From positions 1,729,275 to 1,793,274 of the forward strand of contig NC_049993.1 of the NCBI RefSeq assembly GCF_000003815.2: a DNA stretch of 64,000 bases. The letters run 5' to 3'. The position numbers were made by a program, and so were the translations under genes. The notes under the pieces are model-generated. The model had not been told where the DNA came from. It ran no database searches and saw nothing but the letters and a program-made list of their open reading frames with translations. How positions within the stretch are numbered: the stretch's first letter is position 1; every line of letters starts with the position of its first letter. This document shows positions 19,101-25,100 of the stretch, one piece after another. This DNA comes from Branchiostoma floridae (taxonomy: Eukaryota > Chordata > Leptocardii > Amphioxiformes > Branchiostomatidae).

Positions 19101-22100
19101 GAGGATTGACGTTACGTTTGTAGCTACCGGATCCTAAATGCTTTCTCAGAGAGTAATGAGTTAATGGGGGAAGTGATTTGCACAACGGCACAGCCATAAA
19201 ATAAGAACGGAAGAGGGTTTAGCGTCAGCTTATCTCGACAATCATCAGAGATAATCATCAGCAATCGCCATCAGACGTCACGTCACCCCGGCTCGTCCCT
19301 GGTGGAATCAGCCACGTGGAATGTTGTGGGCATGGCTGACGTTATCTCACACACTGAACTGTAAATTAACTGTCAGAAGTCCCAGTATATATATAGCCTC
19401 TGGGAGGAGGGGCGTCTAGTGTAATTGTTTTTATTCAATGTGTCAACTTAGTTGCTGACGCGGATTCGCAAGTGTAATGAATAAGTGATAAATGTATGTG
19501 ATTTCTTATTGCTGAGATGAAATGTATTTACAAGCTGTTGTTTTACGCATTTTTTTCATGGAAAGCACATTTCCAGAAACAAACTAGAGTTCGACGGAAT
19601 CATTGCCAAATGAACNNNNNNNNNNNNNNNNNNNNNNNNNNNNNNNNNNNNNNNNNNNNNNNNNNNNNNNNNNNNNNNNNNNNNNNNNNNNNNNNNNNNN
19701 NNNNNNNNNNNNNNNAGTCTAGAGCTGAGATACATTTTTTTCTGAAATTCAGAAAAATAGAATCCGTGAACCAAGACATTGAATTGGACTGGCCTGACGT
19801 TATCTTGATAACAGTCAATGCTCTGAGCAACTTGATACTCGAGAGTAGCAAGGACGTTGGTACTGTAAGGTCACATTGCAGGTGGAAGATGACCCGGAAA
19901 CACAAACACAGGCACACTCCAAACTATATCTCCATTTGTCATGGAAATAACTATTAACAAAACCGCAGACGTTCAAAACACATGAGATCAACCTATCCTC
20001 AATTTTCCTTCAACATAAGTCTGCTCAAGTTGGTAAAAGTGATTGGCACCCAGGAGGCAGGGGGCAAGGCTGGGTCAGCCTGCAAGCTTGATCTACTTGC
20101 CTGGCACTGAACAGTTGTCAATAAGACACGTCCAAGCAGAGGTAAGGAGAGACAGTGGAATTATAAACTTCCCACATTGATTATGCAAATTAGCTTTTAA
20201 TTTGCATAACTAGCATCTCATTATGAACGTCTTCACTAAGGCTATCCACGTATGAAAATCATGACGATCCGGCAACACGTTCATATTTCCATTAATTATG
20301 AAAATAAACTCGCCATTTTCATAATTGATATATATCGACATTTCTCTATTTCCCAGCCACACATGTCAGAAGTTTGAAAGTCCTATCATGTCCTGAGGTG
20401 GACTTATAAACGTTCCTCATTTATTATGCAAATGAGCTTCTCATTTAAATAATTAGCATTCCATCACGCAGGCCATCACTCATTCCATCTGCATACCAAA
20501 AATCATGACGATCCGTCAACACGTTCTCGATCCAGTCATCCTCACCCAAAGTTCGAAAGTAAGCCGGCGCCTGCACTTCCAAGAAAGCCGCTAGGGGGCC
20601 CGAACTCGCAGCAATCACTCTGTGCCCCGAGGGCTCTCTACCGCTCAAAATTCACGACCGCAGCATGTCCAGAACGCGAGATATCAAACATGGAGATTCC
20701 GCTGCAGCACCTTAGCAAGCCGATAGGGGGCCCCTTATCGAACTCCCCCTTCGTTCTCCAGACCCCTACCCTAATATCAGCTGCATCCGTCGCAGTCTTC
20801 TCGAGTTATGCTGTTTACAAACAGGGGGAAGACACACAACCCGACCGAAAATATAACCTTAGCCATTCTGGCAAAGGTAACACGACTTTGCTTCATCTGC
20901 AGTGCTTATGATATGCAATTTGAAAGGAAGTCGCTAGAAGGCCAAAAATCCAAGATCATTGCAAACTGCAAAGTTAATTGTCTGCTATTTTCACCAGCTT
21001 CTCATCCAGCAACAAACTAACTCACCAAATGAAAGTGGTGACAAAAGTCTCATTGACGGGCTTACAGAAGTAGGATTCAACCCTGCTCTCCTTACAACCT
21101 CTCCCATCAGACCAGGACTACCCATACGTACCGAAGACGAAGTTGTCTGGGCGGAAGATCTGTCCGAAGGGTCCTGACCGTACGGAGTCCATGGTGCCGG
21201 GTTCCAGGTCCACCAGAATAGCGCGGGGAACGTACTTGCCACCTGGGGAACAAACAAGTGTTGTTTTGTTAATTCCTCACATTGTCTTTATTGTTTAGGA
21301 TTCTGTAGACAGGACAGCTTTAAGATTCCCTGAATATCTTTTTTTAATTGCCTGACAGTATTTTTGTTGTCATAGACACTGCTGAACATAGTCTGTGTAA
21401 CACAAACTCGGCTGTTCAGGGCTGTAATGTTGGTCGGGCTGCTATAAGCGAGATTTAATCAGGCTATGCTTAACAGTGACATTGTCACAAGACAGACCGA
21501 CGATGTTTTTCCGATGTTGCTCTTTAAATCCATGAAACCTCTAAATCTACATAGCAGGACTTCACACTGCCAACCTCTCCGTCTCCTGACCCCCTCTCTT
21601 TGCCCATGCGCAGTTAGCCCTGGGCATGCCTAAAACTATTACAGTGACTCTGTCACATCTGCCCCCGTTTCTTTGATTGATACACTCGTTACAATCATTA
21701 CTACTCCAAGAAACATCCTATGTTGCAGTGTGAGTCCTGTAGGCATGCATTGTATACAGACATTAACAAAACAAACTACTATTACAAAACTACTACCATC
21801 AAACTAAAGTCCAAATGTCCGTTCAAAACGTCGGCGGCCTAGAATATCTAATACAAAGTTAAATGTCTAATAACTCAGAACTACCCTTTTTTTTCAACAT
21901 GCAAGGCTACTCTAGTGTCCGTATTCGTCAGTCCTTTTCCATGCAGTTACAATTCTCAAGTCCATATTCATCAGTCCTTTTTCGTACTGATTCACCATGT
22001 CGGTAGTGCTTCATGCAGGCTTAGACTCCACTAGTTTGATCTTACAACCATTGATTTCAGTCCCGTCAAGCTTACGCCAGGCATTCTCCATGTCTGGGTA

Positions 22101-25100
22101 GGTGGCAAATTCCACAATCCCCTCATTCCTGTTCTGCTTGTGCACATCAGCAAACTTTAAGGTGACTTCTCCAGCTTGCCGCATGTAATCCTTCAAGTCC
22201 TGCCAGCTACAGCGACTGGACAAGTTCTTCACGATCAGGTGGTAGTTAGTGCGGACAGGCGGGCCATATCGTTTCCTGCTCCCTGGCCCCCGGCCGCCAC
22301 CAAGGTTGTGCACGTCACGATATCCTGGGCCAAAGCCACGCTGGCTCCCTCCATACATGAATCCTCGGCTCCTGTCGTAATCTCCGTCCCGTCTGTAACC
22401 CCCGCGACCTCCTCCGTCTCCATGGCAACCGAAAGCTGGTCCGTTATTGGTGGAGGCTATCCTCCAGTCCCCTGCGGATGTGGTCTCCTGATCTAACTTT
22501 TGCGTTGGAGCTGTCTGTACCAGCTTGGCCAGGTTCGGGATGTCACGTCCGAGGATGACAGGTCTTGGCAGGTTTTGACTCACTTTGGCTTTAACCGCAT
22601 AGGTTGTATTCCCCGCATTGATAGTGACTCTTGCGGTCGGATAGTTTTGCACGTCCCCATGGATGCACTTTATGCCGCCCTGAGCAGCTGACACGATCTT
22701 CATAGGGTGAACCAAGTCGTTGTGGACAAATATCTGCGTACTTCCCGTGTCTAAGAACATAGTCATCGGTGTTCCCTCGACTTCTCCGTCGCACTCGTAC
22801 CCTGTCACTTTTCCGTTGCTGGCGTATAATGACGTCGCTTGGGACGGCCCCATCAGTTGTCTCACTTGCGGGCAGGCCCTGGCCAAGTGCTCCGGGCTGT
22901 TACATTTGTAGCACTTCTTGACAACGCGGGCATCACCGTGTCCACCCGGGCTCCCGCTTATGAGCCTCTAGGAAATGCTGAGCCATCTCTGCCATCTCTT
23001 TAATGGACTGCGGGGCTCGCTCTCGTAGGTGAGTGGCCAAGTCTCTTAGACATGCCTCCATGAACTGCTCCCTGACGAACAAGTCCCGGAGGGACTCGTA
23101 GTCCCTGGTCGTCTTGGACAAATCTACCCATCGGTCTAAGTGCTTGGTCAGTTGCACCAGAAACTGTTCCGGACTCTCCCCCTATCCTGGTTGGTTGTGA
23201 CGAAACTTGGCACGGAATCCGTCTTCCGTAAGATTGTAGCGCTGCATAAGTACCTTCTTCACCTTTTCATAATCCCAGGCGTCATGATCGCTAAGCCGAG
23301 AACATACTTCCAGTGCCGTTCCGTTGAGCAAGGCACTTAAGGCAGAGGCCCATGTTGTCTCCTTCCAGCCGTTGCAGGTTGCAAACCTCTCGAACCTCTG
23401 TAGAAAGGCATCGAGGTCGTCCTTGCCATCCTCGAAGGCTGGAAGCTTGGGTACACTTTCCGTTTCTGCGGCTTCACCTTTCTCTGGCACCAGCTGTCTC
23501 ATCTCCAGCTGATGTCGCCGTTCCGCTTTCTTCTCCTGCCTTTCTCTCTCTTTTTCCTCAGCTTGTAACTTCAGCTTCTCTATCTCTACCTGCCGTTCCT
23601 TCTCTTTCTCTTCAGCTTCTAACTTCTGCTTCTCTATCTCTACCTGCCGTTCCTTCTCTTTCTCTTCAGCTTCTCAACTTCTAACTTCATCTTTCCAGCT
23701 TCTAACTGCAGTTTCTCCATCTCTACCTGTCGTTCCTTCTCTCTCTCTCTTCGGCTTCTAACTTCAACTTTTGCATTCCTCTTTCCTTGGCTCTCTCCTC
23801 CCTCTCCAGTGCCTGCTGCACATACGTTTGCAAAGCCTCCTCCTTCAGGCCTAGTTTCGAACCTGCCTCGATATGTCCTTCCATCTTCCTTTTTTTGACG
23901 CTCTACAGCTTACTGATTTGTTTTGGCCCGTCTGGGGGTGATGTTCTACAGTTTACTGATTTGTTTTGGCCCGTCTGGGGTGACGTTCTTTTCGCTGGCT
24001 TGATATCATGCACACACAAAGAAGATGTTTGTTATCATACGGATTGGTTCCATATGCATCCAATTAAGAAGGCATCACTGTAAGTATGGTTGAAATTCTT
24101 TACCCTTCTCTCCCTCAGCAGTAGGGTACATCAACAACTTGGCCAGTCGGACAGCCTTCCAAACTTTCTACTTACTGCTTGGCCAATGGTCACTCTCGTT
24201 CGTCTCTACTGCATGAAAAGTTCGGGAAGTTCTGTAGGCTGAGGGTCTCACTTACCGGTCGTAGACCTTCCGTGAATTTTATCCCACTTCTCGACACCAC
24301 TTGTCACAAGATAGATCGACGCTGTTGTTCCGATGTTGCTCTTTTAATCCATGAAACCTCTAAATCTACATAGCAGGACCTCACACTGCCAACCTCTCCG
24401 TCTCCTGAACCCCTCTCTTTGCCCATGCGCAGTTAGCCCTGGGCATGCCTAAAACTATTACAGTGACTCTTTCACAGACATCCTACGGACATGTGCGGTG
24501 ACGGTGTTTTGGAGAAGTCCCATCCCCTTTATCAATTGTCAATTTGATCAATTCAACTTCCCTTGTACGTGCTGTTTCCTGATACTACTCAATGGGTGGA
24601 GCACGTTTCAGAATCACATTTTGGCAGTCGCTAGACACTGTAGAGGGTACGGTATCAATTGTAAATGAGAAGTCACTTGAGTAACGGTGGATAAAATTAG
24701 CCAGACGCCCTAATTTCCGGGGGAACTAGACTGCATCACCGCCACCTGACGACGGAATCATTCCGCGGCTCTTGCGTGGTGGGTTCGAGCAGAAAATTAC
24801 TACGCATAAGTTTTAAACTTACAATTAAAAAAGTTCACAAAGCTAGGGTTCACGTGGTAGGAACAGTGAAGTAAGAGCGTTTTTTTTCATGAGAATCCAA
24901 AATGCTCTACCACATCTTATATAGAGATATTCAAACAGGTTTCTTTGTCTACGGCACTGTTAGCTATAACCAGACGCTCCATACTTGCTTCATCTAGAAA
25001 CAGTATAACGTTATATATATATATATAAAGCATTTAGAGCTCGATTTGTCATTTAGGTACACTCCATTCGGGGCTCATCATGATACCTACTTTTGGCAGA

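What the first reader, a model, noticed from the sequence alone, without database searches (positions are those of the whole stretch)
21483..24476. LTR element with protease fused in frame to an SR splicing-factor RRM
Seen: matched 175-bp LTRs, GACAT duplications, a primer-binding-like site, gag, CCHC knuckle and DTGS protease. There is no pol; instead, in the same open frame, a Gly/Arg linker and RRM2 with SWQDLKD. Known: SWQDLKD marks RRM2 of SR proteins, which binds purine-rich RNA. Inferred: the element captured a spliced host SRSF4/5/6-type segment. An RNA-binding module on the gag-protease polyprotein could affect packaging, export or splicing of its own RNA. The target duplications show the integrated unit includes the RRM unless it arrived later.
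Basis: partly seen in the sequence, partly recalled or inferred. Interest (0 to 1): 0.92.

Follow-up and report, generated by a model that had tools for sequence, protein, structure and literature searches.

The report
Retrotransposon carrying a captured splicing-factor domain
A small family of jumping genes in an animal genome has taken an RNA-binding domain from a splicing-factor gene like one of its host's and fused it to its own capsid-protease protein, and copies have moved with the domain on board.

Summary
On the minus strand at 21483-24476 lies a 2,994-bp LTR element: 175-bp LTRs (95.4% alike), 5-bp target duplications, SCAN-type gag, CCHC, aspartic protease, no pol, then an SR-protein RRM2 in the protease frame. 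At least 10 copies in the genome have the RRM; three have exact target duplications of their own outside the LTRs. All nine copies with protease DNA carry it, so it is no later insertion. One LTR pair is identical over 174 bp. An SRSF4/5/6-like host gene has introns inside RRM2; the element lacks them. One correction: most of the Gly/Arg linker is not host-derived. A sister gag-protease locus has a homologous linker and no RRM. A 43%-identical relative has protease followed by integrase, as in Gmr1. Best reading: a pol-less, gag-supplying Ty3-type element using an SR pseudo-RRM as extra RNA-binding module. Purifying selection is supported for linker plus RRM between two copies, weakly for the RRM alone; the two youngest-looking copies have a changed SWQDLKD. 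RNA binding and its role are inferred.

The parts
24302..24476 (-). 5' LTR (175 bp, TG...CA)
   Evidence: direct repeat with 21483-21657, 167/175 identical
21483..21657 (-). 3' LTR
   Evidence: 36 genome matches
24477..24481 (.). target-site duplication GACAT
21478..21482 (.). target-site duplication GACAT
24281..24301 (-). primer-binding-like site; tRNA-Leu-like by recall, not tested
   Evidence: LTR end plus PBS pattern found at 3 places, all copies of this family; altered in the C1a copy and mostly missing in the C17 copy
23511..23884 (-). coiled-coil-like Glu/Lys-rich repeats at the start of gag; purine-rich RNA
   Evidence: repeat family D1, short tblastn match of the C17 piece, purine tracts; coiled coil judged by eye
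22951..23478 (-). gag with SCAN domain, frame broken in this copy
   Evidence: intact in the C17 piece, SCAN 5.8e-14
22872..22913 (-). CCHC zinc knuckle
   Evidence: read; Pfam zf-CCHC 4.3e-4 in the C17 copy, just under Pfam's cut-off
22542..22790 (-). aspartic protease (DTGS)
   Evidence: Pfam gag-asp_proteas 6.3e-8
22269..22471 (-). Gly/Arg-rich linker, mostly element-derived
   Evidence: the C17 copy's linker is homologous to that of the sister locus at C2; about the last 10 residues resemble a host stretch
22014..22268 (-). captured SR-protein RRM2 (SWQDLKD), intronless
   Evidence: RRM_1 3.4e-14, SRSF6 RRM2, host gene exons
22011..22013 (-). stop codon right after RRM2; no RS domain
21675..22010 (-). 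3' untranslated part, beside the RRM in 9 of 10 copies
21658..21674 (-). polypurine tract
   Evidence: the same in 6 of 8 copies examined, changed in 2

Best explanation
A pol-less (non-autonomous), gag-supplying Ty3-type LTR retrotransposon family of the SCAN-gag/Gmr1-like kind. Its RNA is translated into one polyprotein: coiled coil, SCAN capsid, CCHC, protease, Gly/Arg linker, SR-type pseudo-RRM. Reverse transcriptase and integrase are supplied in trans, most likely by a Gmr1-like relative. The RRM2 came from a spliced SRSF4/5/6-type mRNA and was joined in frame to an older gag-protease-linker protein. It most likely works as a second RNA-binding module of the particle protein that prefers GGA/purine-rich RNA, such as the purine tracts in the element's own gag code, and so favours the element's own RNA for packaging. 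Shown: anatomy, presence in all copies with protease DNA, mobility with the RRM, intronless form, homology of the linker to a sister locus. Inferred: direction of capture, trans-mobilisation, RNA binding, purine preference, packaging role.
For: RRM in 10 copies with common junctions; 3 of 5 testable copies have exact 5-bp duplications around LTR to LTR; LTR pairs 93.8-100% alike, two at 99.4% and 100%. Single open frame in the C17 copy. Host gene RRM2 split by introns at sites where the element runs on. Host-element dN/dS 0.12-0.20 in 10 of 10 comparisons (part of this is host constraint). Linker+RRM, C17 vs window copy: 17 nonsynonymous, 18 synonymous, Fisher p 8.8e-5; C17 vs C14b 22 and 15, p 0.008. 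Between C17 and window RRM omega (0.41) resembles gag (0.42) and protease (0.47) (0.52 for this RRM pair). SWQDLKD kept in 8 of 10 copies; this heptad contacts GGA in SRSF1 RRM2 (PMC7813835, passages read). Sense-strand 12-nt purine windows 48 vs 10 +/- 6 in shuffles of the window copy, and above every one of 100 shuffles in all 4 copies examined. Relative at C11 with CCHC-protease-integrase.
Against: No RNA-binding, expression or particle data. The two copies with the most alike LTRs have a changed heptad: C17 SWQNLKD, C9 SWQDLKE. The window RRM has two extra residues. Purine tracts may only reflect Glu/Lys codons; GAAGAA is not enriched. Differences within the family in the RRM are near the neutral ratio (singletons 23 N, 10 S, 3 stops; shared 10 N, 5 S, 1 stop; neutral about 3:1); RRM alone C17 vs window p 0.12, C17 vs C9 p 0.82; linker+RRM C17 vs C9 p 0.60. 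No autonomous partner with the same LTR/PBS was found.
Confidence: 0.5

Rival explanations
1. The RRM acts in the nucleus, not in packaging: by covering purine-rich splicing-enhancer sites without an RS domain it keeps the element's RNA unspliced and exported, a Rev- or CERV-like role.
For: RS domain and RRM1 are missing and the stop follows RRM2. The window copy sits in sense inside a beta-tubulin intron. [quoted passage not shown] Cer1 needs its own protein for export of unspliced RNA (PMC10309623, abstract).
Against: The RRM is at the end of a gag-protease polyprotein expected in cytoplasmic particles; no localisation signal was tested; splicing of the element is unknown.
Confidence: 0.25
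2. The RRM is a passenger: a one-off in-frame capture carried along without function, like gene scraps in other transposons.
For: Near-neutral ratio of differences inside the family; stops in 4 of 10 RRM copies; changed heptad in C17 and C9. In Turmoil-1 the captured rsp-2 RRM is reported not to be under purifying selection (PMC2572040, part 1 of 2 read).
Against: Few fixed amino-acid changes since capture (6 nonsynonymous, 13 synonymous fixed differences from host, neutral about 3:1, though part lies on the host branch); linker+RRM p 8.8e-5 and 0.008 in two of three comparisons; in one frame with gag and protease in the C17 copy.
Confidence: 0.22
3. The RRM is a later retrocopy that landed in one element.
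For: The RRM segment is intronless.
Against: 10 copies with shared junctions, three with their own exact duplications outside the LTRs; all 9 copies with protease DNA have it.
Confidence: 0.01

Closest known systems
Gmr1-like Ty3/Gypsy elements (SCAN gag; protease-integrase-RT order, the order recalled)
   Same: SCAN-type gag, CCHC and protease; in frogs SCAN was found in over half of Gmr elements and in no other LTR group (PMC4131045, passages). A protease relative at C11 has integrase right after protease.
   Different: No integrase or RT in the window's family; Gly/Arg linker and SR RRM2 stand where integrase begins.
RLG_Quinta / RLG_Cereba pair of wheat
   Same: Quinta lacks RT and INT, encodes gag plus an extra domain, and is thought to be mobilised by Cereba (PMC11302176, passages).
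   Different: Here no partner with matching LTR/PBS was found, and the extra domain is an identified host-type domain.
PNMA-type metaviruses with a predicted RRM-like domain before the capsid
   Same: Ty3-type gag protein with an RRM-like fold, function unproven (PMC11011659, section 10 read).
   Different: That domain is N-terminal and found by predicted structure; here an SR RRM2 by sequence, C-terminal to protease, close to a host gene.
Turmoil-1 (C. elegans Harbinger DNA transposon) with rsp-2 RRM1 in its ITRs
   Same: SR-protein RRM captured by a transposon (PMC2572040, part 1 of 2 read).
   Different: DNA transposon, RRM1 with intron, in the terminal repeats, not fused to an element protein, reported unconstrained.
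SRSF4/5/6 RRM2 (pseudo-RRM)
   Same: 69% identity to SRSF6 RRM2 in the fold match; SWQDLKD.
   Different: No RRM1, no RS domain; fused to gag-protease.

Membership tests
LTR retrotransposon (Ty3/Metaviridae type) | paired LTRs with TG...CA ends | tested here: met
LTR retrotransposon (Ty3/Metaviridae type) | 5-bp target-site duplication | tested here: met
   exact in 3 of 5 testable copies, one more if one LTR base was lost, one not; exact in 6 of 10 single LTRs examined
LTR retrotransposon (Ty3/Metaviridae type) | PBS complementary to a host tRNA, and PPT | tested here: inconclusive
   stretches in place in the window copy; PBS the same or one base off in 3 of 5 copies with a 5' LTR end, altered in C1a, mostly missing in C17; tRNA identity recalled, no host tRNA compared (none in the window)
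LTR retrotransposon (Ty3/Metaviridae type) | gag with CCHC and aspartic protease | tested here: met
   zf-CCHC just under Pfam's cut-off
Autonomous LTR retrotransposon | own RT and integrase | tested here: not met
   none seen between the LTRs: ORFs; YxDD scan over the loci then held, which cover the window element
Gmr1-like clade | SCAN-type gag | tested here: met
   SCAN 6.9e-8 window, 5.8e-14 C17 copy
Gmr1-like clade | integrase before RT | tested here: inconclusive
   window family has no pol; C11 relative has protease then integrase, RT start seen only by eye at the end of the stretch
SR protein | RRM2 with SWQDLKD | tested here: met
   window copy; heptad unchanged in 8 of 10 copies
SR protein | RS domain | tested here: not met
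   stop right after RRM2; the host gene has it
Metavirus with N-terminal RRM-like domain (PNMA type) | RRM-like domain before the capsid | tested here: not met
   RRM is C-terminal to protease; no Pfam family in the first 150 aa of the C17 copy; not tested by fold

The most novel reading that the evidence does not exclude
A host splicing factor's pseudo-RRM has become the RNA-selection domain of a retroelement's capsid protein: it reads purine tracts in the element's own coiled-coil code, giving a pol-less gag-protease element preference over its pol-bearing partner for packaging, or shielding its RNA from the host SR proteins it descends from.
Probability: 0.27. Interest if true: 0.88.

Novelty: new variant of a known kind. 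Interest (0 to 1): 0.72.

Why it matters
Retroelements must separate their own RNA from host RNA and keep it unspliced. Here a donor-type gene, the spliced form, the joint, a sister locus without the domain and copies with near-identical LTRs all lie in one genome, so the gain of an RNA-binding domain by a capsid polyprotein can be followed step by step and tested with isolated domains. It also gives a Ty3-type parallel to the predicted RRM-like domain of PNMA metaviruses, with a traceable origin. In my searches of the held library (listings, several of them capped, e.g. 12 of 625, plus the papers cited) I saw no LTR element with an SR-protein RRM; most subscription papers and Repbase reports are not covered.

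Tried and rejected
Later retrocopy into one element: rejected. Pol-bearing element with the same LTR: five pairs of LTR hits lie close together; four have no room for pol and the 9.6-kb one (C17) holds a nested LINE-like insert. The six weakest LTR hits (69-77%) were fetched with several kb around; one has gag/coiled-coil fragments, none gave a significant protease or RRM match, and no RT motif was found there. A partial 85% LTR hit on C245 and eight LTR hits listed without a locus were not looked at. LTR end plus PBS pattern, up to 3 mismatches: 3 places, all copies of this family. Host origin of the whole linker: rejected; one host exon stretch scored 43 against the linker without a shuffle control. 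The C8 match is a 46-aa intronless fragment without gag or protease nearby; whether an old copy or a processed pseudogene was not settled; it was left out of the RRM counts. Inserted columns (6 nt in the window copy, 6 nt in the C9 copy) and codons with gaps or stops were left out of dN/dS counts. The IQ-TREE codon run printed no omega and was not used for selection. Absolute ages: not computed, no rate at hand. The protein database could not be asked, so other species are untested. An Rfam search was not made.
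Full report
Observation. The element runs on the minus strand, 5' LTR 24302-24476 to 3' LTR 21483-21657. LTRs are 167/175 identical, ends TG...CA, and GACAT stands on both sides. Downstream of the 5' LTR lies a PBS-like stretch (tRNA-Leu-like by recall only), beside the 3' LTR a polypurine tract. Pfam finds SCAN (6.9e-8), aspartic protease (6.3e-8) and RRM_1 (3.4e-14). Protease and RRM share a 291-aa open frame. Gag is broken into separate frames in this copy. The element lies in sense orientation between two exons of a beta-tubulin gene (matches within 25202-25318 and 21133-21243 minus; one search was a wrong frame and found nothing).

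Family. The LTR finds 36 places in the 513-Mb genome, 28 of them at 86% identity or more over nearly its whole length. The RRM+linker DNA finds 14 places: 10 element copies, a fragment on C8, and three exons of one gene on C6. The tool calls such counts lower bounds. Protease DNA finds 11 stretches in nine copies, all RRM-bearing. RRM and linker are adjacent in 9 of 10 copies, the tenth being 5'-truncated; RRM and 3' part are adjacent in 9 of 10, the tenth (C17) being split by a nested LINE-like insert. Duplications: window ATGTC, C17 CTTAC, C14a ATGCC exact; C9 fits if one LTR base was lost; C14b does not match; C1a, with a cut 3' LTR, cannot be tested. LTR pair identity: window 95.4% of 175, C1a 98.1% of 104, C14b 93.8% of 176, C9 100% of 174, C17 99.4% of 173. 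Of 10 single LTRs examined, 6 have exact 5-bp duplications, so these are solo LTRs. The family thus moved as a unit including the RRM, and recently by LTR identity. Two subfamilies differ by a block of the linker.

State of copies. In the C17 copy one 702-aa frame runs from coiled coil to RRM, its last ~30 aa coming from the insert; pieces hit SCAN 5.8e-14, zf-CCHC 4.3e-4 (just under Pfam's cut-off), protease 1.4e-9, RRM_1 1.7e-14. Its PBS is mostly missing. C9 and C14b are broken into three frames each; 4 of 10 RRM copies show in-frame stops.

Donor. The C6 gene has RRM1 with MGSRVYIGRLP, RRM2 and an RS stretch, the layout of SRSF4/5/6; no gene tree was made. Two introns split its RRM2 and another lies just before YGPP; the element has neither RRM2 intron. 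Element and host differ by dN 0.067-0.096 and dS 0.47-0.60 in 10 of 10 comparisons. Another gene could be the true donor: an intronless RRM at C3 is 64% identical, not read. RRM1 and RS are absent from the element; the stop follows RRM2 directly.

Where the joint lies. Protease as protein query finds 21 rows: 10 in RRM copies, six relatives at 43-44% identity, five at 29-32%. One relative (C11, 1,517-aa frame) goes CCHC, protease, integrase (H2C2 6.6e-17, rve 4.4e-12) and then what looks like the start of RT. Another (C2; 601 bases read) goes from protease into a Gly/Arg linker aligned along its length with that of the RRM family (C17 copy): score 161, against 57 +/- 8.5 and at most 93 in 2,000 shuffles. 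It then ends at a stop without a Pfam match. The four other relatives of that group (C4, C8, two on C6) were not read. So most of the linker belongs to the element, and the host part begins near GGGxG..SRKRYGPP, where the host reads GGGRG..SRNRYGPP, its splice joint set by eye. Gain in the window's family is more likely than loss in the sister, since protease has diverged to 44% identity while RRM and host keep dS near 0.5; this is inference.

Selection. Fixed differences between host and all 10 copies: 13 synonymous, 6 nonsynonymous, neutral about 3:1 in favour of nonsynonymous (binomial 8e-5), but an unknown share lies on the host branch. C17 against window: linker+RRM 17 N, 18 S, p 8.8e-5; RRM alone 8 N, 5 S, p 0.12. 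C17 against C14b: linker+RRM p 0.008, RRM alone p 0.041. C17 against C9: p 0.60 and 0.82. Differences inside the family are near neutral: singletons 23 N, 10 S, 3 stops; shared 10 N, 5 S, 1 stop (C1b and C1c share several and may be duplicates of one insertion). Pairwise omega of RRM resembles gag and protease in the window-C17 pair. Constraint is therefore likely for the polyprotein, and modestly supported for the RRM itself.

Function. SRSF1 RRM2 reads GGA through SWQDLKD (PMC7813835, passages); SRSF5 RRM2 alone bound a viral RNA (PMC9731694, passages). SWQDLKD is unchanged in 8 of 10 copies; C17 has SWQNLKD and C9 SWQDLKE, and these are the two copies with the most alike LTRs. A single-sequence AlphaFold2 model of the window RRM is of modest confidence (mean pLDDT 69, pTM 0.59) with RRM topology and SRSF6 RRM2 (9hx5) as best PDB match. 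The sense RNA has many purine tracts, mostly in the coiled-coil code: 48 windows against 10 +/- 6 in 100 shuffles; GGA 88 against 74 +/- 5; GAAGAA not enriched. This fits binding of its own RNA but may only reflect amino-acid usage. I judge packaging most likely, nuclear splicing/export effects next, passenger third.

Place among the known. It is a pol-less relative of the SCAN-gag (Gmr1-like) Ty3 group, working like gag-supplying partners such as Quinta (PMC11302176, passages). RRM-like folds in Ty3-type gag proteins are on record for PNMA-type metaviruses (PMC11011659, section 10), and an SR RRM in a DNA transposon for Turmoil-1 (PMC2572040). A C-terminal SR RRM2 fused to gag-protease was not seen in the searches named under Why it matters.

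Noticed in passing
L046:2693-5221 minus (C17, nested in an element copy): An 842-aa ORF of an inserted LINE-like element has DnaJ (4.4e-8) and GDSL esterase (9.1e-10) Pfam matches: a LINE ORF1-like protein with a J domain plus esterase.
   Followed up: partly
G000:C3:8017018-8017272: Intronless RRM2-like stretch, 64% identical to the element RRM, 275-aa open frame; not read, could be an SR retrogene or a second capture.
   Followed up: no
G000:C2:34289178, C4:23247893, C8:882056, C6:15241448, C6:3067921: Protease relatives with long open frames (436-693 aa); the one at C2 has the Gly/Arg linker and a different tail, no RRM; the other four were not read.
   Followed up: partly
window 21133-25318 minus: The element sits in sense inside a beta-tubulin intron.
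   Followed up: partly
L045 about 4116-4254 (C8): Short intronless SR-RRM2 fragment sharing some base states with host and some with the element.
   Followed up: partly
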